Positions 812 through 17,483 of a stretch of DNA of 64,000 bases are shown here, in pieces. The number at the start of each line of letters is the position of its first letter. The first letter of the stretch is position 1. Under the pieces are notes generated by a model. The model worked only from the letters and a program-made list of their open reading frames with translations. It ran no database searches and had not been told where the DNA came from. This stretch comes from Kiloniellaceae bacterium (GTDB lineage Bacteria > Pseudomonadota > Alphaproteobacteria > Kiloniellales > J153), in the NCBI GenBank assembly GCA_021776175.1, contig JAJFGJ010000036.1:124001-188000 (forward strand), written 5' to 3'. The translations under genes and the position numbers were made by a program.

Positions 812-841
812 GCGGAACCTCTTGCTTGGATGATGTAATGC

Positions 842-2242
842 TTAGCGGTTGCGGCGGCCGGCGCTTACGGCATCGGCCAGCATGGCTTGAATCTGCCCGC
901 GCGATTCGTTGAAGGCGCGCGGGTTGGGCGTCTGTATATTCACCACGATCCGCGTCTCACCGGAACTGCCGCCGTTTCGCCGCAGCGCGGCTTCCTGCGC
1001 CGGGGTTCGGACAATTTCGCCGCGATGCAGGATGGCCGGCACCTCGCCGGGCGCGAGACTCGGCACGCGCCCAACCATACCGCCGCCGGCAAAGCGCGGC
1101 GCCCCGTCAAAGAACGAGGCTGGCACCACGCGGCCCGGTACGGGCGTCGATCCTACTTGGCCGCCGCCGTGGAACTGCCCGGCAAACGCACCGATCCCAC
1201 TCCCGATCAACCCCGTGACCGCGCCGGCCAGGGGCTCGGTCACCAGCTTACGGGTCAGGATACGCAGGATATCCCGCTCCAAACCTTGCAGCACATCGGA
1301 CAGGTTCCGTCCCTCGACCACCGCGTCCTCGAACGACGAGGCGAAGGTAAAACCCAAGTCGCGCGCGGCGCCGTCTAGCTTGCGAATCGTGCCTAGCTGT
1401 TGACTGAGTGCTTGATCGGTTCGCTCGGCGGCACCTGCCATTTGACCCGTGGCACGCGCGATTCCCGTCTCGGATGAGGCCAACTCTACCTCCCTGGGCG
1501 AGCGTGGCTCCAGGGCACCGCCTTGTCGGAACCGCGGGGCGCTACGAGGCCTCAAGACATCGTCAATGCGGGACCTGACACTTGGATTGTCGGCTATCGC
1601 GGAAATTTCCTTTAGCACTTGCAGAGTTTCGTCCAGCCGCCGGCGCTTCTCTATCGAACTCCCCCTATTTTCGAAATTGGCATTCGGTAAGAGTCGCCCG
1701 AGCACAGTTTCGTTGTCGATCTGACTCCGAAGTTCACGCCGGCGTCTCTCGGATTGTTGTGTCAGTCCCCGGACAAGCTGTTCCTGGGTTGCCACGATGG
1801 CGGCAACATCTTCGTCGGTGCCAAAAACAGATAGTTGCTCCTTGGTCGCGGTACGGAGTATCGCAGCCTGAGACACGAGTTCTTTGAAAGTCTTTAGAAG
1901 ACCTCGGGGTTCAATCCCGGTGAACTTGGCGATGTTTTTCTCTGCCTGAGCGGACTCGTCAGACAGATCCGCCAGCGCCTTGCCAGTTTCTTCGATCGGC
2001 GCGATGCCAGAAAACGCCCCCAAGATCTTCAAGAACTTGCTCAAGGCATTACCGGATTTACCGACTTGGTCTTGAATCGCGGCAAGTCCGCCTCTCAAGA
2101 GACCGATCCGCGCATCCAACAGTCCGAAACCTGTATCTAGCTTGCGCGCTAAACTGTCCGTCGATTGTTCAAATTTCTGTAATGCGGACTCAATTCTCCT
2201 AGTATCGGCTCCTATCTCAAAAGTGAGTCCTTCGTTTGCCAT
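842..2242 (-). CDS. Tail tape-measure-like protein (copy 1, intact)
   Basis: The 466-residue protein begins MANEGLTFEIGADTRRIESA. It has a helical N-terminal half, then a Gly-rich hydrophobic patch near residue 345 (GAVTGLIGSGIGAFAGQFHG). Next come GGG-rich turns and a C-terminal module with PSLAPGEVPAILHRGEIVRT, typical of the end of lambda-type and GTA tape-measure proteins. Its position between the tail-assembly chaperones and DUF2460 fits GTA gene 11. It is longer than the roughly 220-residue GTA version. A 288-bp stretch of its 3' half is almost identical to part of the upstream gene at 2722-4011, which points to a recent internal duplication. This copy keeps the normal C-terminus and is probably the working one. 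Confidence 0.8.
   Translation of the reverse strand: MANEGLTFEIGADTRRIESALQKFEQSTDSLARKLDTGFGLLDARIGLLRGGLAAIQDQVGKSGNALSKFLKILGAFSGIAPIEETGKALADLSDESAQAEKNIAKFTGIEPRGLLKTFKELVSQAAILRTATKEQLSVFGTDEDVAAIVATQEQLVRGLTQQSERRRRELRSQIDNETVLGRLLPNANFENRGSSIEKRRRLDETLQVLKEISAIADNPSVRSRIDDVLRPRSAPRFRQGGALEPRSPREVELASSETGIARATGQMAGAAERTDQALSQQLGTIRKLDGAARDLGFTFASSFEDAVVEGRNLSDVLQGLERDILRILTRKLVTEPLAGAVTGLIGSGIGAFAGQFHGGGQVGSTPVPGRVVPASFFDGAPRFAGGGMVGRVPSLAPGEVPAILHRGEIVRTPAQEAALRRNGGSSGETRIVVNIQTPNPRAFNESRGQIQAMLADAVSAGRRNR
1088..1375 (-). repeat. 288-bp tape-measure duplication, copy 1
   Basis: This stretch matches 2926-3213 without gaps at an estimated 94-95% identity by eye. It encodes the DGAARDLGFTFASSFEDAVV to FHGGG part of the tape-measure protein. 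Identity stops sharply at both ends, as expected of gene conversion or a partial tandem duplication. Confidence 0.85.
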
Positions 2243-2433
2243 TGTGCACCTTGGTTGCGATGGAGGGTCGGGTAAGTTGGGGTTTGAATCCTTGGTTGGC
2301 CGGATTCACAATTGCGAGACTACCATGGCAGACAAACCGCATCCGGGTTGTTATACTTTGGCTTCACAGGCCCCTGCCGCTACGCAAGGTGTTCCGTGTA
2401 TTTGCTTTGGCCCCAAAATAGAATTTTTCTATC

Positions 2434-2817
2434 ATGGTTTTGACCACAGTTTACTTGTTCCCGGTTTTCTTATCGATCGCGTCCCCCGATGAAATTCCCT
2501 TCGCGAGGACACTCGTAAATACATCGTCGGTCTGCGATAGCGCGACGGCGGTGACTCCGGCCGCGGAGGCATACGACCAAGAAGACTACGAGGAGATCGC
2601 GCGACTGGGATGCAGGTTCGCGGTTCCAGAGAAATTGAAGGCTATCGCCTTACGCTGCGAACCGTCGTATTTGGACTACAAGTCCAAAAATTTCTCCTAC
2701 CCAATCGTTCAAGACGTAACCTTACCCGAGGGCATCTGCGAAATAGAAGTCTTCCTGCCAAACGGTTGGAAGGCCATACTTTACACTCATGTCCGAAACT
2801 TCGCCTGGTGGGATTAA
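2434..2817 (+). CDS. Hypothetical 127-aa protein inserted between tape-measure copies
   Basis: I do not recognise this protein. It reads against the surrounding tail genes, begins with a hydrophobic segment (MVLTTVYLFPVFLSIAS) that could be a signal or anchor, and has three later cysteines (SVCDS, LGCRF, LRCEPS) plus a C-terminal GICEIEVFLPNGWKAILYTH region. The local sequence is more AT-rich than the flanking phage genes, consistent with a later insertion. No clear Shine-Dalgarno precedes the ATG. Its last 96 bases overlap the tail of the 2722-4011 frame on the other strand. It could be a moron-type accessory gene, or a chance frame in decayed sequence. Confidence 0.4.
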   Translation: MVLTTVYLFPVFLSIASPDEIPFARTLVNTSSVCDSATAVTPAAEAYDQEDYEEIARLGCRFAVPEKLKAIALRCEPSYLDYKSKNFSYPIVQDVTLPEGICEIEVFLPNGWKAILYTHVRNFAWWD

Positions 2818-4011
2818 ACGCGGCGTGTGGTTGGCCCAATAACAAGCCGATCCCACCTCGACTGTAATGTCACCATTTGCCATTGTGTGCCTTGTGTGTG
2901 CACGAAGCGAGCATTGGTCTCCACTGGCAAAACGCGGCGCCCCGGCAAAGAGCGAGGCCGGCACCACGCGGCCCGGGACGGGCGTCGATCCAACTTGGCC
3001 GCCGCCGTGGAACTGCCCGGCAAACGCACCGATCCCACTCCCGATCAACCCCGTGACCGCGCCGGCCAGGGGCTCGGTCACCAGCTTACGGGTCAGGATA
3101 CGCAGGATATCCTGCTCCAAACCTTGCAGCACATCGGACAGGTTCCGCCCCTCGACCACCGCGTCCTCGAACGAAGAAGCAAAGGTAAAACCCAAGTCGC
3201 GCGCGGCGCCGTCGAGCCGTTGCGCCGAAGCGCGCGCCTCATCGGACTTCCGCGCGACGGTGTCGAGCGCGTTGGATTGCGTCTCCTCGAAATCTATAGC
3301 CTTAGTACCCGCGCCCTCGAAGGCCGTGCCAAGACCTTCAACCCGATCTATCGTGAGTAGGATGTCGTCCCCAGCATTCCCAATAAGTGTTTCGATGCTA
3401 TCGGATCCATTGATGATCCCGCTTTCACTAAGGTCCATTGTTTCTGGGAGGGTCAGTTTTCTATCTAGCCGACGCAGTAATTCGGAGCGCTCTAGCTGTA
3501 GTCGGCGAATTTTCTCCGCCAATTCATTTTCTCGAATGGCATCTCCAAACTCGATTCCCGTTCGTATGCCTTGCATGCTTTGAAGCTGACTAATCCGGTT
3601 TTCGAAATCCGCGAAGCGCTCCCCAGACGATGGCGCCGAAAACGCATTGGACAACATGGCTTCGGCATCAGGGATAAACGCGCCCAAGATCGCACCGGCA
3701 GCCAATGTCACAGCAGTGGTGGCGGTTGCAAGAGATCCAGCCAGTGCTATCGCACTACCCGCAATGGTTGCGCCAATTCCCGCGCCCGTGACCCTGTCAT
3801 CTCTAGAAATTTGGCGCTCTGTATTGCTCACCGGCGGCTGGAGCGTGGCGCTCATGGCTCCAATCTTCCTTAGCGACTCCTCGACGCCAGCAAGCGATTG
3901 GATCATGCTCCGACTCGACCGGGCCACAAGTTGATTCGCCTCGCGCAACCCGCTTCTCAGGCCGCTAAGATCAAGCTCTATGCGAAGAGTCAAGCTGTCA
4001 ATTTCCGGCAT
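2722..4011 (-). CDS. Tape-measure-like protein copy 2, C-terminus disrupted
   Basis: The frame encodes 429 residues starting MPEIDSLTLRIELDLSGLRS. It contains a hydrophobic Ala/Gly-rich stretch (residues about 75-112) and the same FTFASSFEDAVVEGRNLSDV to FHGGGQ block as the gene at 842-2242. After APRFAS the shared C-terminal module (PSLAPGEVPAILHRGEIV) is missing. The frame instead runs into unrelated sequence, including MANGDITVEVGSA, which looks like the start of another MANEGLTFEIGAD-type protein. It ends inside the opposite-strand 127-aa gene. I read it as a tape-measure paralogue truncated by recombination, possibly still translated. The N-terminal half differs from copy 1, so the two may have arisen from separate modules. 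Confidence 0.6.
   Translation of the reverse strand: MPEIDSLTLRIELDLSGLRSGLREANQLVARSSRSMIQSLAGVEESLRKIGAMSATLQPPVSNTERQISRDDRVTGAGIGATIAGSAIALAGSLATATTAVTLAAGAILGAFIPDAEAMLSNAFSAPSSGERFADFENRISQLQSMQGIRTGIEFGDAIRENELAEKIRRLQLERSELLRRLDRKLTLPETMDLSESGIINGSDSIETLIGNAGDDILLTIDRVEGLGTAFEGAGTKAIDFEETQSNALDTVARKSDEARASAQRLDGAARDLGFTFASSFEDAVVEGRNLSDVLQGLEQDILRILTRKLVTEPLAGAVTGLIGSGIGAFAGQFHGGGQVGSTPVPGRVVPASLFAGAPRFASGDQCSLRAHTRHTMANGDITVEVGSACYWANHTPRLIPPGEVSDMSVKYGLPTVWQEDFYFADALG
2926..3213 (-). repeat. 288-bp tape-measure duplication, copy 2
   Basis: This is the partner of 1088-1375, offset by exactly 1838 bases with no gaps. Differences are scattered, mostly single bases. The downstream break point of homology is where the second tape-measure gene loses its normal C-terminus. 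Confidence 0.85.
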
Positions 4012-4185
4012 GGCTCTACCCTCAGATATTAGAGACTATATGTGGCGCGGTTGATTGATCGACGATGCCGGAGGGCGTATCTTGGCTCTTGTGGGGAATC
4101 GATGGAACTTCCTTCATCAAACGGCATATCAACCACCTTCGACCATGCTAAATGGGCAAGGAGGTTTTTTAGTTACGGAGATTGT

Positions 4186-4350
4186 ATGGCCCTAAGACAT
4201 TGCGAGGACTGCTCTAAGGATATCAGTACAAGTGCGCGACGTTGCCCGCATTGCGGTTGGGTCACGCGCTGGGGGGTTGCGGATATCTTTGTCGGCGTTC
4301 CAATCATAACCCTCTTCGTAATGTTCTACATAACTTACTTCGGGCTATAA
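4186..4350 (+). CDS. 54-aa zinc-ribbon/transmembrane microprotein A
   Basis: The start chosen is the ATG at 4186, preceded by GGAG six bases upstream. A longer frame opens at 4042, but its extra residues have no visible character. The protein has a two-knuckle zinc ribbon (CEDC at residues 6-9, CPHC at 20-23) followed by one C-terminal membrane segment (about residues 33-52, IFVGVPIITLFVMFYITYFG). It reads against the phage late genes and is paralogous to the next small gene. The function is unknown. Zinc-ribbon plus TM microproteins are often accessory, and this one may be a phage moron. Confidence 0.6.
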   Translation: MALRHCEDCSKDISTSARRCPHCGWVTRWGVADIFVGVPIITLFVMFYITYFGL

Positions 4351-4396
4351 CCCCTCCGATCGAATTGGCATTCGATCTAGCTAAGGGAAATACGCT

Positions 4397-4558
4397 ATGG
4401 CGCTAGAGATTTGTATAGACTGTCGCAAGCAGGTTAGTTCTCTAGCGATGGAATGCCCACATTGCGGTATGATAATGAATCGAGGTAGAACTATATTGTT
4501 CGTGCGTGTGACGATGATCGTCTTACTTGTCTTTTTTCTGCACAACCACCTCTCTTAA
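4397..4558 (+). CDS. 53-aa zinc-ribbon/transmembrane microprotein B
   Basis: This short frame starts at an ATG preceded by AAGGGAAA and ends in TAA at 4556-4558. It encodes a paralogue of the gene just upstream: MALEICIDC and MECPHCG supply CxxC knuckles at residues 6-9 and 20-23, the same spacing as in microprotein A. A basic linker and one hydrophobic segment (residues 32-48) follow. The two genes are 46 bases apart and codirectional, so they are probably one transcript. Conserved knuckle spacing with diverged remaining residues argues that both are real and anciently duplicated. Confidence 0.6.
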   Translation: MALEICIDCRKQVSSLAMECPHCGMIMNRGRTILFVRVTMIVLLVFFLHNHLS

Positions 4559-4636
4559 AACCGCACCTGTCGCCACAGGTTTCGACTGATTTCTTTATTG
4601 GTTTATTGGTTGCCCGGCACCAAGCGGCGCGCCAAG

Positions 4637-4837
4637 TTAGGACTCACGCCCCGCCCGGTCTGGAAACCGCTGCTTCATGGCTTCCAGGCGCTCGATCTCA
4701 TCCTCGCTCAAGGCGCCGTCGTCTCGTCGGATGCAGTTGACGCTCACCCAATCCTCGAACGCGGCCCAGAATTCCCGCGGTGTCGCGGCCCAGAATACCG
4801 GCGGCGCCCAGCCGAGACGGCCGAGCGCGATCTTCAT
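4637..4837 (-). CDS. Phage/GTA tail assembly chaperone (TIGR02216-like)
   Basis: The 66-residue protein has the LGWAPPVFWAATPREFW segment and EIERLEAMKQRFPD end typical of the small tail-assembly chaperone that follows the GTA_TAC gene (GTA gene 10.1, DUF2376 type). It follows the larger chaperone gene by five bases and precedes the tape-measure genes. That is the expected place for the pair of proteins which load onto the tape measure before tail polymerisation. Confidence 0.8.
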   Translation of the reverse strand: MKIALGRLGWAPPVFWAATPREFWAAFEDWVSVNCIRRDDGALSEDEIERLEAMKQRFPDRAGRES

Positions 4838-4842
4838 GTATT

Positions 4843-5217
4843 CTAGGACGTAGTCGCCACCACCGCTGGTAGTTTTGGCTTGGGCGCCGCGCCGGCTTTT
4901 TTTTCCTCGTGCCCACCGAAAGCATAACTCTGGCAGAACTTGACCAGCGCCGCGATGACGCCGAGGGAGCCTTGGGCGACAATCGACTCCCCCAGTTTAT
5001 CCAGGTCTATCGATGCGCCCGATTGCGCGATACAGGCATGGGTGAACTTGACCAGATCCTGCACCGTGATCTCGGCCCGCTCCAGCTTGCGGCCGATATC
5101 GAAGAGGTTGGTGCCAATCGCATCCTCGATCTCGCAGACCGCCCCAAAAGTGGGGCGGAGAACGTAGGTTTTTCCACCCAGGTCCAGTTCGACTTCGCCG
5201 CGCGCCTTGTTCGCCAT
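4843..5217 (-). CDS. GTA-type tail assembly chaperone (Phage_TAC_11-like)
   Basis: The 124-residue protein begins MANKARGEVELDLGGKTYVL and contains RPTFGAVCEIEDAIGTNLFD. This is the hallmark of the GTA gene 10 family, annotated as 'gene transfer agent family protein' or TAC_11. Its C-terminal tail is Lys/Ala/Pro-rich and probably disordered. It lies two bases from the major tail gene and five from the second chaperone gene, so it is tightly coupled in the late operon. Confidence 0.85.
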   Translation of the reverse strand: MANKARGEVELDLGGKTYVLRPTFGAVCEIEDAIGTNLFDIGRKLERAEITVQDLVKFTHACIAQSGASIDLDKLGESIVAQGSLGVIAALVKFCQSYAFGGHEEKKAGAAPKPKLPAVVATTS

Positions 5218-5219
5218 GG

Positions 5220-5636
5220 TCAGATGGCCACGTAAACGGGCGTGCCATGGGAGTTGAGCGTGAGCGAGTAAGTCTCCGCCCCGTCATGGTCCCCGGTACG
5301 TTCGTAGTTGGAAATCTGGAAAGCGCACTCCAAGCGGTCGCCGTTCTCGAAGGTGATCTCGAACAGGTTGATGCTCTGGTTGAAGGCCCACTGGCGCACG
5401 GTTTCCTCACCCACGCTATCTTGGAAGACGCCACCCGCCGACACGTTGAGCGAACGCACGCCGGCGCCCGCCAAACGCTGTTGCCAACCGTTGTCATCCT
5501 TGGTGGTGACGTCGACGTCCTCGCCGTTGATGGTCCAGGTCGTGGTGCGAAGGCCCGCCAGGGTGGTGAAGACCTGTGGCGAAGCGCCTGTCAGGTCGGC
5601 CTTCAAGAGAACGAGTTTACCTTTCTGTGCCGGCAA
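5220..5636 (-). CDS. Phage major tail protein (TP901-1/GTA gene 9 type)
   Basis: The 138-residue protein starts MPAQKGKLVLLKADLTGASP and has the VTTKDDNGWQQRLAGAGVRS motif typical of TP901-1-type major tail (tube) proteins. In this family the DVTTKDDNGWR region follows the first beta hairpin. The length matches GTA gene 9. A ribosome site (AGGAGGAAC in the transcript) precedes the ATG. Upstream of it lie more than 500 bases with no same-strand gene, so the tail part may have its own promoter or depend on read-through. Confidence 0.88.
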   Translation of the reverse strand: MPAQKGKLVLLKADLTGASPQVFTTLAGLRTTTWTINGEDVDVTTKDDNGWQQRLAGAGVRSLNVSAGGVFQDSVGEETVRQWAFNQSINLFEITFENGDRLECAFQISNYERTGDHDGAETYSLTLNSHGTPVYVAI

Positions 5637-5860
5637 TGTTCGGTTCCTCCTATTGGAAAACGGAAAGGCCTACCTGGCCCATGACGCGCCGCCTGCCTGG
5701 CGGTTGTGGGTAGTATCTCAGTTTTCAATTCTGCTGAACCAACGTCTTGAATGTCCGCTTTTTAGCGAATCACGTCGGCTTTAAGTCCAACGATAGACAT
5801 TGGCGTAGGCTCATCGGCACTTCTACTCCTGACCCAAAGGAAAAGTCTGCTGGACCGGAG

Positions 5861-6000
5861 GAAGCAGAGCACTGGTCGCTGACCACCCTGCGGGAGTAAG
5901 GCGGTTAAGATTGGCGCGAAGGTCGTGCTACATGACCGCTATGTCATCTTTCAGCCTGCGGAGGTGGCATTAAACCGCATGACCTTGGGTCTTATCAGGA
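5861..6000 (+). pseudogene. IS1380-family transposase 3' remnant (frameshifted)
   Basis: In one frame 5861-5896 reads EAEHWSLTTLRE then a stop. In the +1 frame from about 5904 it continues VKIGAKVVLHDRYVIFQPAEV. Together they give the WSLTTLRE..KIGAKVV..RYV.FQ.AEVAV signature near the C-terminus of IS1380-type transposases. Only this end is left and it is frameshifted, so the element is dead. The region from 5637 to 6200 holds nothing else I can support. Confidence 0.6.
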
Positions 6001-6209
6001 CGAGTAAAGAGCCTCAGCCGGCGAAGTTCCACCAAATGCGGCCGAAGCATACGCCCACAAGCCGTTTTGCCGCTGCGGGTTGTCAGCGGATGACGAAGAA
6101 TGACGTAAAGATGCTCCGATTGATGTGGATCAATGACTTTCAACAGAATTGAGCGTTCATGTGAATCCCATCTGGGAAATCTGGGATAAGTGTGTAACGA
6201 GGTATGAGT

Positions 6210-6866
6210 ATGCGTATCATTGTCAAGCTAATTGCTGTTCTTGGCGTGGTGACGTTGGTTCAACCGGCAACCGCAGCCGTCATGACCTTCAGCGATCTTC
6301 CAGAACTGGCTCTCCCCGGGGAGGAGTACCAGGAGGGTGGCATTACCGCATCCCCCATTAACGGAAGGTTGGGCTACTACACTATTCCTGGTACGGCTCA
6401 TTTAGACGACGCCGGAACGTCGTATGCCAAGTCAATGAATTTCACTATGGACTTCATTTTCTATGCAATAAGCTTCGATATTCTTCCTTACGACACTGCC
6501 TATTGTGCTGATGAGTCGGTTCCATGCAGTGGCGACCCATACGATAATGTTTTGGTACAGGGATATTGGGATGGTTCCCTTGTTGCAGAAGACATATTTT
6601 TTATGGGCGAACAACCGAGCACATACTTGTTCAGCGACCAATCTCTAATCCTGGACCAGTTGGTTATTGGTGCCCTGTATCCGGACATAGCTACGATTGG
6701 GGGAATGTGCTTGACCGCCCCCTGCGGTCATTTCAACATAGACAACGTCAGACTCGATCCCATCCCCCTTCCGGCTGCGCTCCCGCTCTTTTCCGCAGCT
6801 CTGGGTCTCCTAGGATTTCTAGGCCTACGGCGCTCGGGCCGCACCGCGCTGAAAGTACCCGTGTAG
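6210..6866 (+). CDS. Exported VPLPA-CTERM (PEP-CTERM-like) sorting-signal protein
   Basis: The start chosen is the ATG at 6210, with GAGG about seven bases upstream; an ATG at 6204 is also in frame. The 218-residue protein has a signal peptide (MRIIVKLIAVLGVVTLVQPATA) and a beta-rich body with two cysteine pairs (CADESVPC, CLTAPC). It ends in a tripartite tail: PIPLPAALPLF, a hydrophobic helix (SAALGLLGFLGL) and RRSGR. This matches the VPLPA-CTERM sorting signal read by an exosortase/rhombosortase-type system and coupled to exopolysaccharide. It is unexpected inside a phage cluster. IS1380-like remnants on both sides suggest it arrived on mobile DNA. Confidence 0.75.
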   Translation: MRIIVKLIAVLGVVTLVQPATAAVMTFSDLPELALPGEEYQEGGITASPINGRLGYYTIPGTAHLDDAGTSYAKSMNFTMDFIFYAISFDILPYDTAYCADESVPCSGDPYDNVLVQGYWDGSLVAEDIFFMGEQPSTYLFSDQSLILDQLVIGALYPDIATIGGMCLTAPCGHFNIDNVRLDPIPLPAALPLFSAALGLLGFLGLRRSGRTALKVPV

Positions 6867-7045
6867 GGGGTCTATTTGGCGTAGAACGTGATCCGATAGC
6901 CCCTATAGCACGATCCCCGGATTTACCGAAAAGCCGGATATTGTGGGCTGCGGCCGATGAGATGCGATTTACGCGAACGCTCACGGCGCTGTCAGGCGCA
7001 TCAATGAAGTTGGCTGTCTGTTACGGCGAGCCGGGAGCAAAGCAA

Positions 7046-7216
7046 TCATTGTCGCCGCACCCTGTTGACCTGCACCAGCGTCTCGCTCACGGTCATGTCC
7101 GGCCGGGCCTGTAGCACGGCCCTGACCACTTCCTCGGTCTGCCCCACGTAATCCTCGCCCTCGGCCTTGGCTCTCGCCAGAGCCCGGCGGATCACGCTTT
7201 CGATGTAGGGTTCCAT
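7046..7216 (-). CDS. Conserved-looking 56-aa hypothetical protein
   Basis: A short leftward frame from the ATG at 7216 to the TGA at 7046 gives a charged, helical protein beginning MEPYIESVIRRALARAKAEG. It continues EDYVGQTEEVVRAVLQARPD and then MTVSETLVQVNRVR. The amphipathic helix pattern and absence of rare codons suggest a real small protein. No domain is recognised. It lies between the VPLPA-CTERM gene (other strand) and an IS remnant. It could be a fragment of the original phage operon or cargo of the insertion. Confidence 0.5.
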   Translation of the reverse strand: MEPYIESVIRRALARAKAEGEDYVGQTEEVVRAVLQARPDMTVSETLVQVNRVRRQ

Positions 7217-7288
7217 CGCAGGTATGAAAGCGCGGGGTAGTTTCTAGAATCTTTCGCACATTTTGTTTTGGGTTGATGGCTGATCTGG

Positions 7289-7417
7289 TCAGGCGGTCAT
7301 CCTTTGCTGCTTGAGCAGGGTCATGTTCATGTAGCGTTTGAGGGACCATTTGGTGCCGATCTTGATGAACTGCTCCCGGACCGTCGCCAACGACCAATGC
7401 TCGACATTCTTGGGCAT
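7289..7417 (-). pseudogene. IS1380-like transposase C-terminal remnant
   Basis: The leftward 42-codon frame reads MPKNVEHWSLATVREQFIKI then GTKWSLKRYM. The EHWSL.TVRE..IKIG.K block matches the IS1380 transposase C-terminus, after which the sequence diverges from the family. It is in inverted orientation to the remnant at 5861-6000, and the two flank the VPLPA-CTERM gene. Apart from it, 7217-7516 shows no gene. Confidence 0.45.
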
Positions 7418-7516
7418 TGCGAATTTCCGCTTTTGGTACTACCCGGCCTCTCTCGCCGCACAGGAACGGCGACCGCTTTCATCCGCTGAGCCGACATTCG
7501 CATTCGCATTGCGCTC

Positions 7517-8263
7517 TCAGCGCATCGAATTTCGAACTGAGACACTACCCGGTTGTGCCGGGACCGGCTCGGCGCTCGCCAAAACCGCCCGCCATTCCTC
7601 GGCATAGGCGGCCGTTTCGCACCCGGCCATGTCCGGTGTGCCGCGCGTGAAATGTGCGACCTTGGGTTTGAGCGCGGGATCGGACCATCCTTCCAGCCAG
7701 TTCCATGATTCCGGCAAGCCCTTGATCGATGCATCGTCGATCCAATGCAGACCGTGCAGCCAAGCGCCGCTGCGATTGTTGACCGCGTAGGGGGTCAGGC
7801 CGGCGCAGCGCCCGGGACGCAAGACCATGAGGCTTGACCAATTCTTACGCGGGTAAACTGTTTGCATGAGGCCGGCCATCTTGTCGCGTTCGCGCGGCCT
7901 ATGCTGGTGTTTCACACAGGCGACGGCGGCATCTCCCGCCGCCTCAACCAAGTCCGCGATATCGGCGCGCCACAGCATGTCCGCGTCGCAAAAAACAACC
8001 GGCTCGTGGCCGAACTCTTCCAAGAGCGGAATGCAGAAGCGCGTATAACTGAACCCGGTTGAAAACGGCCGCCCGTCGCGCCCATCCCACATTTGTCCGC
8101 GCTCATCGACCGAATAGGGCCGCCAGTAGAACCCCTTGGCGCGCAGCTCCCAATCTTTCAGCGCCACGATCTCGATCGGCACACTGGCATGGCGCAGCAA
8201 GGAGCGGCGGCAAACCTCGAAGGCGGCGATATCGCGTTGATCCCAACCGATGTATACTTTCAC
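7517..8263 (-). CDS. GT8-like family glycosyltransferase
   Basis: The 248-residue protein begins MKVYIGWDQRDIAAFEVCRR. It carries a DxD nucleotide-sugar/metal motif in VVFCDADMLWRADI (around residue 95) and a later NWSSLMVLRPG segment. KVAHFTRGTPDM near residue 208 is similar to the HxxG metal-binding end of GT8-type transferases. It has no signal peptide or membrane segment, so it acts in the cytoplasm. It is the last gene of a four-gene leftward cassette that interrupts the phage structural order. The acceptor is unknown; virion protein or cell-surface glycan modification is plausible. Confidence 0.7.
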   Translation of the reverse strand: MKVYIGWDQRDIAAFEVCRRSLLRHASVPIEIVALKDWELRAKGFYWRPYSVDERGQMWDGRDGRPFSTGFSYTRFCIPLLEEFGHEPVVFCDADMLWRADIADLVEAAGDAAVACVKHQHRPRERDKMAGLMQTVYPRKNWSSLMVLRPGRCAGLTPYAVNNRSGAWLHGLHWIDDASIKGLPESWNWLEGWSDPALKPKVAHFTRGTPDMAGCETAAYAEEWRAVLASAEPVPAQPGSVSVRNSMR

Positions 8264-8279
8264 TCAGCCGCTCCGATTA

Positions 8280-8795
8280 TCAGTGTGAAAAGACCGTGTG
8301 GAGCGCCACATCGTGCCGGCCCGCCGCCTTGAATTCTTGGAGGCGTCGGGTCCACCACTCGGGTTTTTCGACCGTGACGTGGCAGTTCATGCCGTTGGGC
8401 AAGGACTTGCGGGCGGCACGGCAACAAATGGAGAGGAACACGAACTTTCGCGCAGGCCCGAAGCAATCGGCCAACACGGTGTCCAGCTCGTCACGGGGCA
8501 CATGCTCCAACACGTCGCTGCAAATCACGCCATCGAAGGGTCCACGCGGCATAGCCGCATAACGCGCCACGGCGGGATCGTAGAGCGCCGGGCGCGGCAC
8601 ACCCCACCACTCATGGACCTTGTAGCGGTCGTATTGCTGACCTTGACCGCAACCGTAATCGAGCAGTGTCAGCGCGCCATGGCGCTGAACGGCGTCGTAA
8701 ACGTGCCAGGCGACCGGCAGCAGGGAGCGGCCGGGAAAGACCCCGCCCCGCGCGTGCATAAGCCGGTATTGCCCGATCAGGGCCCCTTCGCTCAT
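8280..8795 (-). CDS. Class I SAM-dependent methyltransferase
   Basis: The 171-residue protein shows a Rossmann methyltransferase core: motif I LLDYGCGQGQQYDRY (around residue 44), an acidic YDPAV strand end, and motif IV-like FDGVICSDVLEHVPRDEL. This matches Methyltransf_11/23 members often found among glycan and phage accessory genes. It overlaps the upstream gene by four bases and is 16 bases from the glycosyltransferase gene. The substrate is unknown. Confidence 0.75.
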   Translation of the reverse strand: MSEGALIGQYRLMHARGGVFPGRSLLPVAWHVYDAVQRHGALTLLDYGCGQGQQYDRYKVHEWWGVPRPALYDPAVARYAAMPRGPFDGVICSDVLEHVPRDELDTVLADCFGPARKFVFLSICCRAARKSLPNGMNCHVTVEKPEWWTRRLQEFKAAGRHDVALHTVFSH

Positions 8796-9571
8796 GTGCC
8801 CAACAGCCAGTGGAAAGGCGCGCCGCTCTCGATCTCGCTAACCGTCCATTGCGCCCAGGCCAAGCGTTCCAAGGCCGGCAGGCGGTCGGGATAAGCCGGG
8901 GTCTCGATATTCTGGATGCCACGCGCGCAAGCACCGGCGCACACAATTTCGGGCGCTTCGTAGCAAACCGGCACGCCCTCTATAAGCGCTCGCACCGCGA
9001 CGCTCCCGGCCCAGGTCACCAGACCGTGCGCTCCGGCCAGAGCCTCGTCGAGTGGCCCTTGGGCCCGTGCCAGTTCGGGATAGAGGCGGCTTTTCGGATG
9101 AGCCCGAAAAAGTATAGGCCGCTTCGACAAGCGCTTGAGCCGGGTCCCAACATCGTCGTGCCATAGCGGCGGGCTGGCCATGGCGTAGCTGCCGATCCCG
9201 CGTTGTTCCGTTACCAGGATATGCGATCCGGTTCGCCGCCAAGGGCGCAAGGGAATGCCGAAGGAGGCCCAGCGTTCGGGTCCGCCGCAGCGCCAGCGGC
9301 CGGCGCCATTGTGATCGTGTAACGCCAGGGCGAAGGCGGTCTCGCCCTTGATCCGGCGCAAGTAGGCCTCCTCGCACACCAGGACCTGGCCGCCGGCCGC
9401 CTCGAAGGCGCGCGCGGCGTTTTCCTTGGCGCCGCGATGAACGGTCCAGGTGACCAACAGATCGCGGCGGCCGCGCGGATGACCGGCCCCCTCGGCAATG
9501 CGCCACCCGGCTCGTTGAAGGCCGCGCAGGATCGTTTCGTGGCGGCCATCCGCGAATCTGTCCGGCAGCAA
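8792..9571 (-). CDS. Capsule/glycan-type transferase-like protein
   Basis: I chose a TTG at 9571, directly after the upstream stop, which gives 259 residues from LLPDRFADGRHETILRGLQR. An in-frame ATG at 9679 would add residues lying wholly inside the preceding gene and looking like its shadow. Features are a LLVTWTVHRGAKENAARAFE block, ILVTEQRGIGSYAMASPPLW, then RPILFRAHPKSRLYPEL and TWAGSVAVRALIEGVPV. The last two resemble the C-terminal half of capsule polysaccharide transferases (KpsS/LipB type) and related phage-borne glycan proteins. The assignment is by pattern only. Confidence 0.55.
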   Translation of the reverse strand: MLPDRFADGRHETILRGLQRAGWRIAEGAGHPRGRRDLLVTWTVHRGAKENAARAFEAAGGQVLVCEEAYLRRIKGETAFALALHDHNGAGRWRCGGPERWASFGIPLRPWRRTGSHILVTEQRGIGSYAMASPPLWHDDVGTRLKRLSKRPILFRAHPKSRLYPELARAQGPLDEALAGAHGLVTWAGSVAVRALIEGVPVCYEAPEIVCAGACARGIQNIETPAYPDRLPALERLAWAQWTVSEIESGAPFHWLLGT

Positions 9572-9572
9572 G

Positions 9573-10199
9573 CTATAGGCCGTCGGCGAGCACCTGGTCG
9601 AGGGACGCCTTGGGGAAAACATCGAGGGCACTGCCAGGCGTGCAGTTGACGACGGATACGCCGATCGCATCCAAGGCATGAGCTAATCCCTCGAAGTGTG
9701 GTAAAAAAATATCGCGAAACAGATTGGGCCGGGTTGGCCAATCTTCGTGATCGCCGAACCAATGGGTGCGACCGTCCGCGCCCGGTTTCATGTCGTAGCC
9801 GAGCAGCAAAATGCGCCGGGCGCCCAGATGCACGGCCAGGTTGATCGCCTGATAGCCGCCGTTGCGCCCGGTTCGCAGACCGCGCGGGTCGCGTTCCAGG
9901 CCCCCGGTCCCGGTGTTTTCCAGAATTCCGATAGCCGGCCAGTCGCGGACCAGATCGGCGCTGTTGGACAGGGTCACCTTCAGGTTCTTGAAGGCAGGCA
10001 CGCCGCCGTGCTTGCGCCACCAGCGCCCATCGCAGGCGTAGAGAACCTCGGCCCAGGGCGCCAAGCGCCAGGCGTCGTTGACGGCGATGGTCCGCGTCTT
10101 GTCGCGCAGCGCCCTAACTTGCGCCGCCGTCAGGCTCGGCCCGCCGCCAAGGCACGCGAAGGTCTCCCCCGGCCACAGGCAAGGCGCGGTCCAAGCCAC
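9573..10199 (-). CDS. DUF115/MptE-like glycan-associated Rossmann protein
   Basis: The 208-residue protein opens with FACLGGGPSLTAAQVRALRD, then TIAVNDAWRLAPWAEVLYAC, and later GYQAINLAVHLGARRILLLG followed by YDM. This is the DUF115 (MptE-like) pattern, a Rossmann-type fold seen in flagellin/glycan modification loci and in many phages. It begins 10 bases after the tail-terminator gene and leads the four-gene cassette. A role in providing or transferring a nonulosonate-like or other sugar is possible but not shown by the sequence. Confidence 0.7.
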   Translation of the reverse strand: MAWTAPCLWPGETFACLGGGPSLTAAQVRALRDKTRTIAVNDAWRLAPWAEVLYACDGRWWRKHGGVPAFKNLKVTLSNSADLVRDWPAIGILENTGTGGLERDPRGLRTGRNGGYQAINLAVHLGARRILLLGYDMKPGADGRTHWFGDHEDWPTRPNLFRDIFLPHFEGLAHALDAIGVSVVNCTPGSALDVFPKASLDQVLADGL

Positions 10200-10209
10200 C
10201 GCCGCCTTG

Positions 10210-10623
10210 TCAGGTCGCCTGGGTGATGGCCCGGAAACGTTGCACGCCGTGGCGGGTCAGGCCGTCGCTATCGAGGAACGTCGTGCCGAATTCGAAACGC
10301 AAGAGAATGAGGGTATGTCCAACCAGATTTAGCGCTTGCTGGTCCAGGGCATTCGTGACCGCGGCCATGATGTCTTTTATTTCCTTTAGGCCCCGGTAAC
10401 GCGACCAGGCGTGGAGCGTCAGGGTTTGCTCCATGCCGTCCTGGGTCTTGGCGTCGAAAGGAGACGAGGATGCTTCGCCGATAACGAGGTAGGGAAAAGC
10501 GCTCTCAGGCGGAACATGGTCGAAAATACGTGCCGGATCTCCGATCAAGGATTTAACACCCGCGTCCGCGTTCAAGGCGGCGAAGATCGCGGCCTGCAAG
10601 GCCCATTGCGAATCGGCGCTCAT
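10210..10623 (-). CDS. Tail terminator/completion protein (DUF3168, GTA gene 8 type)
   Basis: The 137-residue protein begins MSADSQWALQAAIFAALNAD, followed by IFDHVPPESAFPYLVIGEAS and LTLHAWSRYRG. These are the conserved blocks of DUF3168, the tail terminator of HK97-like phages and GTAs. It starts four bases inside the HK97-gp10-like gene. In GTAs the next gene is the major tail protein. Here a 4.5-kb insertion separates them. Confidence 0.88.
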   Translation of the reverse strand: MSADSQWALQAAIFAALNADAGVKSLIGDPARIFDHVPPESAFPYLVIGEASSSPFDAKTQDGMEQTLTLHAWSRYRGLKEIKDIMAAVTNALDQQALNLVGHTLILLRFEFGTTFLDSDGLTRHGVQRFRAITQAT

Positions 10624-12536: not shown

Positions 12537-13088
12537 TCAGATCTCGTCGTAGGCGAAAGTCAGCGTCTCGGCCGCGAGAACGCCGTTACCGGCGGCCGGT
12601 TCGACCTCCATGACCAGAACCAGGAAATCGCCGATCTCTTCGAACGGAGATCCATCGGTAAAGGGCCCGGTGTTGATCGCGTCCAGGTCTATGGGGCTGC
12701 CTTGGGTGGCGGTGAAAAAGTCGGACATGTTTTCGACCGGCGAACCGGCGGCGACCGATTGCGGCGGATCCGCCGCCTCGTTGGGCACGACAGGCTGCGT
12801 ATAGGCGCCGGTCACGGCATGCCAGAGTTTAACGCCGGCACCGAAGCCGTTGGCGCCATCCGAATAGGCGCGCAGGTTGGTGATCTGCGTGAAAGCGCCG
12901 CCTGCTATTTCCAGACGCAGCCATTTCTCGAAGGAATATTCCTGGCCGCTGCCCGGTACGACGAGGGGGTCGTTCAGATCGATATTCGCGTCGTCGGCGT
13001 TTTTGAAGCGGATCGTTCCCGCCGTCTTGTTGCTTCTGATGCCGGGCGCGAGCCCATTGTATTCGTTGATAACGACGTTCGCGGCCAT
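12537..13088 (-). CDS. Phage structural protein, probable decoration/fibre component (183 aa)
   Basis: The 183-residue protein starts MAANVVINEYNGLAPGIRSN and has several predicted beta strands (SFEKWLRLEIAGGAFTQITN; GDFLVLVMEVEPAAG). It also contains an Asp/Asn/Gly-rich segment (FKNADDANIDLNDPLVVPGS). Its acidic, beta-rich character and its place between the LamG protein and the small head genes suggest a virion surface protein. No family is assigned. Confidence 0.6.
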   Translation of the reverse strand: MAANVVINEYNGLAPGIRSNKTAGTIRFKNADDANIDLNDPLVVPGSGQEYSFEKWLRLEIAGGAFTQITNLRAYSDGANGFGAGVKLWHAVTGAYTQPVVPNEAADPPQSVAAGSPVENMSDFFTATQGSPIDLDAINTGPFTDGSPFEEIGDFLVLVMEVEPAAGNGVLAAETLTFAYDEI

Positions 13089-13089
13089 A

Positions 13090-14520
13090 TCAATGCCTCC
13101 TGTTGCCGGATGGAATCACGCTTCGCCGCCGCCCGCCCGCGACTCTGTGGCCGCCGCGCGCGGCGGCCTTGAAAGTCCGGCTGCCGGCCGCCGCGGCCAC
13201 CAGGCCGAGAATCGCGTCCATCGCGGCGGCACGGCTAGGCGTCGCGCGCAGAATGCCCTGCAATGCGGTGCTGGAAATTCGATCCCCACGCCGCGCCACG
13301 GCGTCGAGCCCGGCGGTGCCCTGAAAGTTCAACGCAAGCCAGGCATCCAACGCGGCCGTGTCATGCTTCGGCGCGCGCAGCGTCGCCTCAAGCGCTCCGC
13401 TCAAGAGATTGAGACTTCGGATCGCGGCATCCAGCGAGGCGCCGCTCTGAGCGGCGCCTTGCACGCTCAGATTAGCGTCGAGACCGGCGCCAAGGCCGAG
13501 CGCACGAGCCAGCGCGGTGTCGAGATCCGCCTGCGCCTGCCTTACCGCCTGGACCGCGAGATCTAGGCTCGCGCCCCTTGAGGCATTGGCCCGCAGGGCC
13601 GCGCCAACCAGGGCCGACAAGACGGCTTCGGCACGCAAGGCGGCATCGCTGGACGCCAAGATATTCCCTTGGCGCCGCACCGCCACGTCCAGCGCCCCAA
13701 TGGCGGTGCGCGAAACCGCACCCCCGCCCGCCGCCGTGGGCCACACGCGCAGCACGCGGTTCTCGCGGTACAGGTCCCAGCGCGTGGCGGGATCGTACAG
13801 CGCCCAAACCTCGCGAGCTGACAGCGCCCGGTCGTAGATACGCACGTCGGCCATGGCGCCGTCGAAGTGGCGGCTCTCGGCCTCACGATGTCCTAAGAAA
13901 ACGCCCCGAGCGGACGAGGGTATATTGCCTGAACCAACCTTGTTCGCGACCTCTACGCCATTTCTGTACAGCCGCATGGCCGTACCGTCATAAGTTCCGA
14001 TCCAGTGTTGCCAATTACCTGTAGGAAGTGTCGTTTGAAATATAAGATCGGTATTGCCACCGATGCGAAACCAGACGCCAGCGTCAGCCCCTGGAGAAAG
14101 CGAGAATATTGAATAAACATCCGATCCGCCCGCGTCGGTGCGCTTCGAGAGGAAACGACTTCCACCCGAGGTTCCTGCTGTATCCGGCTTGATCCAGGCG
14201 CACAGCGTGATCTCGTTGCCGGTGATGTCGAGCGCCGCGACATTGCCGCCCGCGACGTGGGCCTCGTCGCCGCCATCGAAGTCGAGGGCATGGGCGTTTG
14301 TCGCCGCCGCCGCGATCCAGCTTGGCGTCTCGGCGCCCGCCCCCAGAACCAGATGCGCACCACCGCCCGAAACATCCCGAAGGCCGATACCCGGCCCGGC
14401 GAACAGCGGCCAGCACGCGGCCAGCCCCTTGGCCTGGGGGCTGGCGCGGTCGATCTCGAAGGGCCAGCGCGGGGCGTGATTACCGACCGCGTGGCGGAAG
14501 TGCGCGGGGTCGAAGCGCAT
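13090..14520 (-). CDS. LamG/concanavalin-like lectin virion protein with Ala-rich C-terminal half
   Basis: The 476-residue protein has a LamG-type jelly-roll at about residues 60-235. Its features are LDFDGGDEAHVAG, ITLCAWIKPDTAGTSGGSRF, WQHWIGTYDGTAMRLYRNGV and ADVRIYDRALSAREVWALYD, the last being the classic end of LamG domains. After WDLYRENRVLRVWP (a common phage ending) it continues for about 220 Ala/Leu-rich residues with loose repeats (SLDLAVQAVRQAQADLDTAL) and a strongly basic tail. This is probably a head-fibre or tail-fibre-like adhesin binding surface glycans. It is absent from canonical GTA clusters. Confidence 0.75.
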   Translation of the reverse strand: MRFDPAHFRHAVGNHAPRWPFEIDRASPQAKGLAACWPLFAGPGIGLRDVSGGGAHLVLGAGAETPSWIAAAATNAHALDFDGGDEAHVAGGNVAALDITGNEITLCAWIKPDTAGTSGGSRFLSKRTDAGGSDVYSIFSLSPGADAGVWFRIGGNTDLIFQTTLPTGNWQHWIGTYDGTAMRLYRNGVEVANKVGSGNIPSSARGVFLGHREAESRHFDGAMADVRIYDRALSAREVWALYDPATRWDLYRENRVLRVWPTAAGGGAVSRTAIGALDVAVRRQGNILASSDAALRAEAVLSALVGAALRANASRGASLDLAVQAVRQAQADLDTALARALGLGAGLDANLSVQGAAQSGASLDAAIRSLNLLSGALEATLRAPKHDTAALDAWLALNFQGTAGLDAVARRGDRISSTALQGILRATPSRAAAMDAILGLVAAAAGSRTFKAAARGGHRVAGGRRRSVIPSGNRRH

Positions 14521-14927
14521 TAGACCTGATCCACGGACACCGGGACGTAGCGTAGGGCGTTGCCGGCCGAGGCCAGGGCGGCGCCGGAATTATTGAACAC
14601 GCGGAATTTCACATGGCGGGCGTGAACCGGCATCGTGAAAACCTTGACGGCCGCCGTGGTCCCGTTCATCTGCACCGCGCCGACCAGAAGATCGTTGTCC
14701 GAATCGGAAAAGTCCGCATTCTCGTTCGACCACTGAGCATAGATTTCAACCAGACCCGTCGCGCCCGCCGCCACGCCGTCGAGCTTGACTTCCAGGCTCA
14801 GGGCGAATGGGCCGGGACTGCCTAGGTCCTTGGCTGTGGCGACCACAGAGGCGGCATCGGCCAGACTGTCGAGAGAAATGGTGACCGCCGTATCGGTGCC
14901 GAAATTTTGTCGGATGTCTTCAGCCAT
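14520..14927 (-). CDS. Phage structural protein (135 aa)
   Basis: The protein starts MAEDIRQNFGTDTAVTISLD and contains LSLEVKLDGVAAGATGLVEI, QWSNENADFSDSDNDLLVGA and VHARHVKFRVFNNSGAAL. This is a single beta-sandwich-like domain, as in phage decoration or fibre-base proteins. Its stop overlaps the start of the LamG gene by one base, so the two are probably made in fixed ratio and may interact. No named family is recognised. Confidence 0.6.
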   Translation of the reverse strand: MAEDIRQNFGTDTAVTISLDSLADAASVVATAKDLGSPGPFALSLEVKLDGVAAGATGLVEIYAQWSNENADFSDSDNDLLVGAVQMNGTTAAVKVFTMPVHARHVKFRVFNNSGAALASAGNALRYVPVSVDQV

Positions 14928-16679: not shown

Positions 16680-16739
16680 GAATGTCCTCCTGCCTGGGAA
16701 ATTCCGGCCAGCGTCCTGCCGGCCCATGATGATTCGGTA

Positions 16740-17483
16740 TTAGCGTGAAACCGGCGAACCGGCCGCCACGAGGCCGGCGACACGCCGCAGGCGCGCCGCC
16801 AGATCCTCGAGGCTCCTGGCCGACTCTTGCCCGGCGTCCCGCCTAGGCGTGAGGGCCTTGTACCCGGACCCAACAATGGTCCGGGCCTGCGAGCGGCTGA
16901 ACCCGGCATCCCGCGTCAGGTAGCGCTCGAACTCTCGCTCGCTTGGCAGGCGCGCGCCGGTCCCAGCGCCGCTCAAGCCTTTGACCCGCGCCACACGGGC
17001 GTCCGGGTTGGCGGGAAAGGTCACGACCGAGACCTCCCAAAGATCGATCCGGGTCAAGCGGCGCAACGATTTTTCGCGGTCGAAGCTGGCACCCGTCCGG
17101 GGCACCGAAAATCCGATCGACAGCGCGTCGACCGCGCCGGCGCGCAGCAGAGCCAGGGCCTCGCGCGCCTGTTGAACCTCCAGGATCAAACGCCCCTTGA
17201 CCGCCAGCCCGGCCTGCGTTTCGGCGATCCGCTCCCAAATGCCGATGGGCGCGCGCGGGTCGTGTTGCCACAGCATCTTGACCCGCCGCGCGTGTCCTAA
17301 GCTGTCTCGAAAGGCGCCCGGCTCGATCATATCCCCGGTCCGGTCGGGGGAGCCGAAGGTCGAGGCGAGACCCTCGAAGACCCCGATCTCCTGCCCATCG
17401 TCCGTGCGTTGCGTCGCGAGCGATTTCAGTTCGAAGGGCACGTTCAGGCGCTCCGGCGCCCCGGCGGTGGAAATTACGGCCAT
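16740..17483 (-). CDS. HK97-family prohead protease
   Basis: The start at 17483 (MAVISTAGAPERLNVPFELK) has GGGGAG seven bases upstream, favouring it over the ATG at 17498. The 247-residue protein has the S78 herpes/HK97 protease core: FEGLASTFGSPDRTGDMIEP, the catalytic His in LWQHDPRAPIGIW, and the catalytic Ser in ALSIGFSVPRTG. It ends with DLWEVSVVTFPANPDARV. It cleaves the capsid scaffold during head maturation. Its gene precedes the capsid gene by 60 bases, the usual arrangement. Confidence 0.92.
   Translation of the reverse strand: MAVISTAGAPERLNVPFELKSLATQRTDDGQEIGVFEGLASTFGSPDRTGDMIEPGAFRDSLGHARRVKMLWQHDPRAPIGIWERIAETQAGLAVKGRLILEVQQAREALALLRAGAVDALSIGFSVPRTGASFDREKSLRRLTRIDLWEVSVVTFPANPDARVARVKGLSGAGTGARLPSEREFERYLTRDAGFSRSQARTIVGSGYKALTPRRDAGQESARSLEDLAARLRRVAGLVAAGSPVSR

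What the first reader, a model, noticed from the sequence alone, without database searches (positions are those of the whole stretch)
7517..10199. Four-gene glycan/methyl cassette inside the tail operon
DUF115-like, capsule-transferase-like, methyltransferase and GT8-like genes are packed head to tail on the virion strand, exactly between the tail terminator and the major tail gene, which are normally adjacent. Their tight overlaps suggest co-expression with late genes. They could glycosylate or methyl-glycosylate virion proteins, or alter the host surface at the time of particle release.
Basis: partly seen in the sequence, partly recalled or inferred. Interest (0 to 1): 0.6.

Follow-up and report, generated by a model that had tools for sequence, protein, structure and literature searches.

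The report
Sugar-transfer genes inside inherited phage-like cluster
A bacterium inherits a phage-like particle gene cluster, resembling a gene transfer agent, whose tail genes are split by four enzyme genes that probably attach a sugar to the particle's tail proteins.

Summary
Four intact minus-strand genes, g1-g4 (window 10199-7517), lie between the tail terminator (10623-10210) and the major tail gene (5636-5220). A 1.84-kb insertion element (5708-7550), absent from the relatives compared, now separates g4 from the tail gene.

The surroundings change the reading. The cluster is RcGTA-like in its tail and sits at the same chromosomal site in congeneric Kiloniellaceae MAGs. It evolves like the flanking housekeeping genes, with purifying selection on the cassette (dN/dS 0.08-0.20 within the genus). 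I therefore read it as a GTA-like, vertically inherited particle cluster, not a recent prophage.

g1 folds like the catalytic domain of Maf, the flagellin O-glycosyltransferase (Z 16.7). g2 folds like KpsC/WbbB Kdo transferases but lacks their nucleophilic Asp. g3 is a methyltransferase; g4 has a conserved DxD.

g1 relatives sit among virion genes on the same strand in 55 of 63 viral and 27 of 28 genomic loci. A related six-gene cassette fills the same terminator/major-tail slot in a tail-only, head-less cluster of another family.

Best explanation: soluble enzymes that O-glycosylate (and methylate) a tail or other virion protein. This is inferred. No chemistry, particle or DNA transfer was shown.

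The parts
9573..10199 (-). g1: single-domain DUF115/Maf-like glycosyltransferase (phrog_4603)
   Evidence: AlphaFold model pLDDT 96; VIA-align best match Maf 5mu5 Z 16.7, CstII 12.1; dN/dS 0.12-0.20 in three congeners
8792..9571 (-). g2: GT-B-like protein with KpsC/WbbB (Kdo transferase) fold, nucleophile Asp replaced by Gly; ORF opens at 9679 but the probable start is TTG 9571
   Evidence: dN/dS 0.15-0.19
8280..8795 (-). g3: SAM-dependent methyltransferase
   Evidence: PF13489 1.8e-5, phrog_24759 1.7e-19; dN/dS 0.08-0.16
7517..8263 (-). g4: GT8-like / nucleotide-diphospho-sugar transferase family (phrog_28018), conserved D93-x-D95; its last residues are read from the inserted element
   Evidence: dN/dS 0.09-0.13; G385 g4 ends in a stop before the tail gene
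10210..10623 (-). tail terminator / tail completion (upstream border)
   Evidence: PF11367 1e-33, phrog_176
5220..5636 (-). major tail (tube) protein, TP901-1 / Rcc01691 type (downstream border)
   Evidence: PF06199 8e-36, phrog_1407, PDB RcGTA tail tube 2.7e-24
5708..7550 (.). inserted element between g4 and the major tail gene; inverted ends, 6-bp direct repeat ACAACC; carries a plus-strand ORF 6204-6866
   Evidence: absent from G385, G386 and L002; partial copies of its ends elsewhere in the genome
10620..12355 (-). neck (11012-10620), head closure (11338-10988), head-tail adaptor (12002-11340), gp77-like (12355-11975)
12537..14927 (-). conserved 183-aa protein, LamG-domain protein (14520-13090), 135-aa protein; found in the congeners, no relatives detected in G389
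15516..19234 (-). major capsid protein (16727-15516), prohead protease (17498-16740), portal (19234-18002)
20204..22055 (-). terminase large (21580-20204) and small (22055-21450) subunits
203..5217 (-). tail chaperones (5217-4843 GTA-gp10 type; 4837-4637), two tape-measure-like ORFs, distal tail protein (811-203, Rcc01695 family); baseplate hub, NlpC/P60 and megatron-like genes continue past the window start

Best explanation
The four genes are a glycan-transfer cassette built into the late (particle) operon of a vertically inherited, RcGTA-like gene-transfer-agent cluster of Kiloniellaceae-type Alphaproteobacteria. The enzymes have no predicted membrane segments and would be made together with the tail proteins. 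Proposed working: g1, a minimal Maf-like enzyme, moves a CMP-activated acidic sugar (nonulosonic acid or Kdo) onto Ser/Thr of a particle protein before or during assembly; g2 and g4 extend the sugar and g3 methylates it. The acceptor is most likely a tail protein, the major tail protein being the simplest candidate. Shown here: gene order, conservation, purifying selection, folds, same-strand virion context, and a related cassette in the same slot of a head-less tail cluster. Inferred: donor sugar, acceptor, order of steps, and benefit (shielding, stability, or adsorption to a glycan-binding receptor).
For: 1) The particle cluster is at one chromosomal site in congeners: both flanks shown in G385 and G386; G387 shows one flank and is broken inside g2. 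Virion, cassette and flanking genes have similar synonymous divergence (pS against G385: cassette 0.34-0.53, flanks 0.28-0.44). 2) Cassette dN/dS is 0.08-0.20 in three congeners and 0.16-0.23 against G389. 3) Tail and head genes match RcGTA: distal tail 9.7e-56, hub 2.6e-62, megatron model 500 bits (cut-off 800), MCP 8.4e-43, tail tube 2.7e-24. 4) g1 matches Maf (protein O-glycosyltransferase) best, Z 16.7 over 184 residues, ahead of CstII at 12.1. C. botulinum Maf uses CMP-activated Neu5Ac and KDO (PMC11339370, abstract and passages). The genome has a NeuB. 5) g1 relatives lie with virion genes on the same strand in 55 of 63 and 27 of 28 loci, opposite strand 0 of 91. 6) G148 and G446 keep terminator-g1-g2-g2'-MT-GT9-like-g4-major tail beside chromosomal genes, with no head genes between; G148 has no PF05065 capsid or PF04860 portal. 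dN/dS across the shared genes is 0.02-0.24, except 0.56 for one gene with almost no changes. 7) No membrane segment: highest 19-residue hydropathy mean 1.35. 8) Caulobacter giant phages CcrColossus and CcrBL9 carry g1-g2-(g2')-g4 after RcGTA-like tail genes and before the endolysin.
Against: No chemical or particle data exist. Fold does not fix the acceptor: CstII, which modifies lipo-oligosaccharide (recalled), is second best for g1, and Foldseek itself gave no g1 match at E <= 0.001. g2 lacks the Asp nucleophile of Kdo transferases, so a Kdo donor is unproven for it. In other phages the cassette lies beside head genes (MCP | adaptor in 10 of 63 viral loci), so a tail acceptor may not be general. 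In this genome two insertions (5708-7550, and a plus-strand DUF6969 gene at 19435-20172) break the operon, so the cluster may be failing here. The capsid is closer to Rhizobium phage RHph_X2_25 (50% identity) than to RcGTA, so RcGTA orthology is not shown. The short sibling-genus contigs of G388 and G391 show a different gene order.
Confidence: 0.55

Rival explanations
1. The enzymes remodel the host's surface glycan (LPS, capsule or flagellum) late in particle production, for instance to hide receptors and avoid re-adsorption to the producer.
For: CstII and KpsC are surface-glycan enzymes (fold and profile matches; their roles partly recalled); the g4 family also occurs away from virion genes (38 of 40 class loci), with neighbours that include SIS-domain and sulfotransferase genes.
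Against: No membrane or flippase gene and no membrane segments; g1 matches the protein-modifying Maf better than CstII; 0 of 91 g1 loci have virion genes on the other strand; a head-less tail cluster keeps a related cassette inside its tail genes.
Confidence: 0.2
2. The cluster is an ordinary, recurrently integrating prophage and the cassette is a moron without a settled role.
For: g1-type genes are common in true phages: 76 phage records, PAJU2, Caulobacter giant phages.
Against: Same chromosomal site and synonymous divergence like the flanks; no integrase, replication or lysis family among the cluster and border ORFs scanned.
Confidence: 0.1
3. The cluster is a dying remnant in this genome; the cassette is kept only by inertia.
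For: Insertion element at 5708-7550 and plus-strand DUF6969 gene at 19435-20172 inside the operon; the element is missing in G385 and G386.
Against: All cassette and main virion ORFs are open; within the genus dN/dS is 0.04-0.32 for cluster genes, tape-measure ORFs up to 0.45. The test averages over the branch and cannot see recent loss.
Confidence: 0.12
4. The enzymes modify packaged DNA or a nucleotide rather than a protein.
For: Virus glycosyltransferases that modify DNA are known (as cited in PMC12619734, passage).
Against: A tail-only cluster without detected capsid or portal carries a related cassette; no base-modification gene was seen among the cluster ORFs scanned.
Confidence: 0.03

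Closest known systems
[quoted passage not shown]
   Same: Tail gene types and order (major tail, GTA-gp10 type chaperone, small chaperone, tape measure, Rcc01695 distal tail, hub, NlpC, megatron) and HK97 capsid homology
   Different: A glycosyltransferase/methyltransferase cassette splits terminator and major tail gene; extra head genes (LamG protein and others); capsid closer to a Rhizobium phage; no particles or DNA transfer known
Maf flagellin glycosyltransferases (PF01973, 5mu5)
   Same: g1 matches the catalytic domain fold (Z 16.7); the g1 of G148 passes the Pfam cut-off (37.3 against 34.6 bits)
   Different: g1 is 208 residues, one domain, without the N- and C-terminal domains described for Maf (PMC11339370, passage); genomic partner is tail genes, not flagellin
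KpsC / WbbB Kdo transferases
   Same: g2 fold (Z 13.4) and profile match (4.6e-7)
   Different: Asp nucleophile replaced by Gly in g2; Asp at this place in only 3 of 29 aligned sequences
Mycobacteriophage virion glycosylation
   Same: Phage-borne glycosyltransferases that put glycans on capsid and tail tube (as cited in PMC12619734, passage; the original paper was not held)
   Different: No enzyme-level comparison made here; no phage infection cycle here; the cassette is inherited with the chromosome
Caulobacter giant phages CcrColossus and CcrBL9, and Pseudomonas phage PAJU2
   Same: CcrColossus and CcrBL9: g1-g2-g2-like-g4 in a row next to RcGTA-like tail genes. PAJU2: g1, an unknown gene and a methyltransferase between head closure and neck genes
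   Different: Replicating phages; other slots in the late region

Membership tests
RcGTA-like gene transfer agent | At least six RcGTA-type head-tail genes clustered (criterion seen in PMC6821227 passages) | tested here: met
   MCP, tail tube, GTA-gp10 type chaperone, distal tail, hub and megatron matched in one cluster; NlpC and tape measure matched below cut-off
RcGTA-like gene transfer agent | Fixed chromosomal site, vertical inheritance, purifying selection | tested here: met
   tail tube gene in 8 of 9 family genomes (the ninth is 59% complete)
RcGTA-like gene transfer agent | No integrase, replication or lysis genes in the cluster | tested here: inconclusive
   None among ORFs scanned; not every small ORF was scanned
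RcGTA-like gene transfer agent | Classified as GTA rather than virus by composition (GTA-Hunter) | not testable with these tools
   classifier not available; the paper lists 0 RcGTA-like clusters for Kiloniellales (5 genomes, 3 OTUs)
RcGTA-like gene transfer agent | Particles carry and transfer host DNA | not testable with these tools
   needs experiment
Maf / DUF115 protein O-glycosyltransferase | Maf_flag10 catalytic fold | tested here: met
   5mu5 Z 16.7, rmsd 3.1, 184 aligned
Maf / DUF115 protein O-glycosyltransferase | Pfam PF01973 gathering score | tested here: not met
   19 bits against 34.6 for g1; its relative in G148 reaches 37.3
Maf / DUF115 protein O-glycosyltransferase | Three-domain architecture | tested here: not met
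   g1 is 208 aa and aligns only to residues 261-513 of 5mu5
GT42 sialyltransferase (CstII) | Fold, plus the catalytic His (recalled) | tested here: inconclusive
   fold Z 12.1; sequence alignment too weak (E about 0.4) to place the His
KpsC/WbbB Kdo transferase | Asp nucleophile (D160 in KpsC by PDB titles of adduct mutants) | tested here: not met
   aligned position is Gly in g2; Asp at this place in 3 of 29 aligned sequences
KpsC/WbbB Kdo transferase | Fold | tested here: met
   Z 13.4, rmsd 3.8, 231 aligned; Foldseek 1.2e-6
GT8 | GT-A fold with DxD | tested here: inconclusive
   D93-x-D95 invariant in 16 of 16; no Pfam GT8 match, PDB profile hits weak; no model made
Phage virion glycosylation system | Glycan found on a particle protein | not testable with these tools
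   needs mass spectrometry
Phage serotype-conversion (gtr type) cassette | Membrane flippase and membrane transferase (recalled) | tested here: not met
   no membrane segments in g1-g4 and no such gene in the cassette

The most novel reading that the evidence does not exclude
A host-domesticated tail glycosylation machine: a Maf-like O-glycosyltransferase cassette, spread among phages, has been kept for long times inside both a gene-transfer-agent-like cluster and a head-less tail (tailocin-like) cluster, where it decorates the tail tube much as Maf decorates flagellin and sets which cells the particle meets or escapes.
Probability: 0.35. Interest if true: 0.82.

Novelty: new variant of a known kind. 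Interest (0 to 1): 0.64.

Why it matters
Virion glycosylation is known in mycobacteriophages, but I found no report of it in gene transfer agents or tail-only particles. Full-text searches that found none: 'gene transfer agent' with 'glycosyltransferase' and 'alphaproteobacteria' (12 papers, 11 listed; passages of one read); 'gene transfer agent' with 'glycosylation' (33 papers, 20 listed; passages of one read); 'tailocin' with 'glycosyltransferase' and 'alphaproteobacteria' (0).

If true, bacteria maintain sugar-coated particles for their own use, and the idea can be tested by co-expressing the enzymes with one tail protein. It would also give a function to phrog_4603, labelled only 'alpha-2,3-sialyltransferase', which is common among phage head-tail genes. 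RcGTA-like clusters would extend to a lineage where a class-wide survey listed none (Kiloniellales, 5 genomes).

Tried and rejected
Serotype conversion of the host by a gtr-like set was rejected as the main reading: no membrane component.

Naming g1 a sialyltransferase was rejected: PHROG says so, but the fold is nearer Maf, and the catalytic His could not be placed. Naming g2 a Kdo transferase was rejected: the nucleophile is missing.

g4 as a marker of the cassette was rejected. It was found in 44 of 385 class genomes including the own one, but 20-kb stretches (shorter at contig ends) from 40 of the 45 other places showed virion genes and g1/g2 in only 2 of 40; 5 places were not fetched. A Pfam tally of 73 neighbours of the other 38 gave mostly TPR proteins (7 of 73) and no clear LPS locus.

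Window portal protein against G148, G379, G401 gave nothing, yet G379's locus has a portal by profile. That search was therefore too weak, and the head-less claim rests for G148 only; other portal and capsid families were not tested. Terminase_6N matches exist in G148 and G446 on other contigs, so head genes of another type elsewhere are not excluded. One tail ORF in G446 has a stop inside the aligned stretch, and the last G148 ORF has no match there.

Rows dropped or weak: in the dN/dS table, values where pS was saturated are 'nan' (2 of the G389 values). The IMG/VR loci include near-duplicates, and 8 of 63 show no virion gene by my profiles. A 5-kb limit gives 48 of 63. Seven or eight of the 28 genome loci come from this same family cluster.

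A transposase relic in the element was suspected by eye only. No named IS family was assigned.
Full report
What is there. The window lies in a 394.6-kb contig of a 3.76-Mb, 39-contig genome. Four minus-strand genes, g1 10199-9573, g2 (ORF 9679-8792, probable start 9571), g3 8795-8280 and g4 8263-7517, lie between a tail terminator (10623-10210; PF11367, 1e-33) and the major tail gene (5636-5220; PF06199, 8e-36). They are tightly packed (gaps 10, 1, -4 and 16 nt). It has inverted ends and the 6-bp repeat ACAACC on both sides. Relatives G385, G386 and L002 have no such element and run from g4 straight to the tail gene. Fragments of its ends occur elsewhere in the genome (9 further partial matches).

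The setting is a GTA-like cluster. From the small terminase (22055) past the window start to the megatron-like gene (contig 119375-122698) the genes are those of a siphovirus-like particle: terminases, portal, protease, capsid, adaptor, head closure, neck, terminator, tail tube, chaperones, tape measure, distal tail, hub, NlpC/P60 and megatron-like. Several match RcGTA: distal tail TIGR02217 9.7e-56, hub TIGR02218 2.6e-62 (tested on the G386 copy), megatron NF048004 500 bits (below its cut-off of 800), capsid 8.4e-43 and tail tube 2.7e-24 against the solved RcGTA particle. The closest capsid among phage records is Rhizobium phage RHph_X2_25 at 50%, so descent from the RcGTA line is not shown.

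Vertical inheritance. In congeners G385 and G386 the cluster lies between the same chromosomal genes on both sides: a polyprenyl synthetase on one, and bactofilin, a cobalamin-independent synthase-like gene and others on the other. In G387 one flank is present and the contigs break inside g2. G389, another genus, is colinear over its 22-kb contig. Synonymous divergence (pS) from G385 is 0.34-0.53 for the cassette, 0.27-0.62 for virion genes and 0.28-0.44 for flanks. dN/dS is 0.08-0.20 for the cassette in three congeners. The tail tube gene is in 8 of 9 family genomes, the ninth being 59% complete, and at about 35% identity in 4 of 49 other genomes of the order. g2 is in the same 8 of 9 and in 1 of 49. 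A survey of alphaproteobacterial GTAs lists none in 5 Kiloniellales genomes (PMC6821227, passages only).

The longer form. In sibling genera the slot holds g1, g2, a second g2-like gene, a GT9-like gene, an FkbM methyltransferase and g4 (G389 L140; IMG/VR L004). The window's genus has g3 in place of the middle genes. The short contigs of G388 and G391 show other orders (g4-tail tube-g1-g2; repeated chaperones), which may be real or assembly faults.

What the proteins are. g1 was modelled at pLDDT 96. Foldseek gave no match below 0.001, but the second aligner puts Maf of Magnetospirillum first (Z 16.7, 184 residues, 3.1 A), then CstII and Cst-I (12.1) and archaeal HPPK (11.5). g2 (pLDDT 88) matches KpsC and WbbB Kdo transferases by Foldseek (1.2e-6), by VIA-align (Z 13.4) and by sequence profile (4.6e-7). 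The Asp that KpsC uses as nucleophile (mutated in entries 8fuw and 8fux) falls on Gly in g2; only 3 of 29 aligned sequences have Asp there. g3 is a small methyltransferase. g4 keeps D-x-D in 16 of 16 sequences. None has a membrane segment. The genome has one NeuB synthase for a nonulosonic acid.

Where relatives sit. Of 63 IMG/VR loci with g1, 55 have recognisable virion genes on the same strand (48 within 5 kb) and 0 have any on the other strand. Of 28 loci in named genomes, 27 have them on the same strand and 0 on the other. The IMG/VR set is viral by selection; the genome set is not. Slots vary: capsid | adaptor, adaptor | head closure, terminator | tail tube, and after the tail genes in Caulobacter giant phages. 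In PAJU2 g1, an unknown gene and a methyltransferase lie between head closure and neck. Most viral loci have g1 without g2-g4 by my profiles (42 of 63). By contrast, g4 alone occurs away from virion genes in 38 of 40 class loci.

A tail without a head. In G148, a different family of the class, 3-hydroxyacyl-CoA dehydrogenase and copper amine oxidase genes are followed directly by terminator, g1, g2, second g2, methyltransferase, GT9-like, g4, tail tube, chaperones, tape measure, distal tail, J-like and fibre genes. The genome has no PF05065 capsid and no PF04860 portal match, while control genomes ring. G446, same genus, has the same cluster beside the same genes, with dN/dS 0.02-0.24 for nearly all genes (one nearly invariant gene at 0.56; one ORF with a stop in the alignment). 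A related cassette in the terminator/tail-tube slot of a head-less cluster makes a tail acceptor the simplest reading. Caveat: only two head families were tested, and terminase-like matches exist elsewhere in both genomes.

How it most likely works. Soluble enzymes made with the tail proteins; g1 as Maf-like first transferase from a CMP-sugar to Ser/Thr; g2, g4 and g3 extending and methylating. C. botulinum Maf accepts CMP-Neu5Ac and KDO and recognises local Ser/Thr context (PMC11339370, abstract and passages). All catalytic statements about g1-g4 are inference.

Scores. What is new is the combination: a long-kept glycosylation-type cassette inside a GTA-like cluster and inside a head-less tail cluster.

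Noticed in passing
window 5708-7550: Insertion element with inverted ends, 6-bp direct repeat ACAACC and a plus-strand ORF (6204-6866) with a PEP-CTERM-like tail (by eye); partial copies of its ends at 9 other places in the genome.
   Followed up: partly
window 19435-20172: A plus-strand DUF6969 gene (PF22308, 7e-85) sits between terminase and portal, against the operon; G385 has portal directly after the terminase.
   Followed up: partly
window 5666-5705: Two short hairpins with loops AGGCA and AGGTA (GCCAGGYAGGC, 2 matches, 0.11 expected) just before the tail tube gene; also seen in G385 and L002, not in G386. Possible control of tail-tube expression.
   Followed up: no
L156 5713-19993 and L246 from about 10308: Head-less, conserved siphovirus-like tail cluster with a six-gene cassette in another alphaproteobacterial family: a candidate flexible tailocin.
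   Followed up: partly
window 13090-14520: LamG-domain protein in the head region is among the fastest-changing cluster genes (62-64% identity where capsid has 86-90%); a candidate receptor-binding head fibre.
   Followed up: no
window 842-4011: Two tape-measure-like ORFs in tandem; G386 aligns to both through one 450-aa ORF.
   Followed up: no
window 23552-25116: HTH plus HipA-like pair beside the cluster, with no match for the HipA ORF in the fetched G385 and G386 contigs.
   Followed up: no
L002 (IMGVR_UViG_3300022697_000401): A contig filed as viral is 48-95% identical, protein by protein, to this cluster (mostly 76-95%) and is probably a GTA-like locus of a relative.
   Followed up: partly
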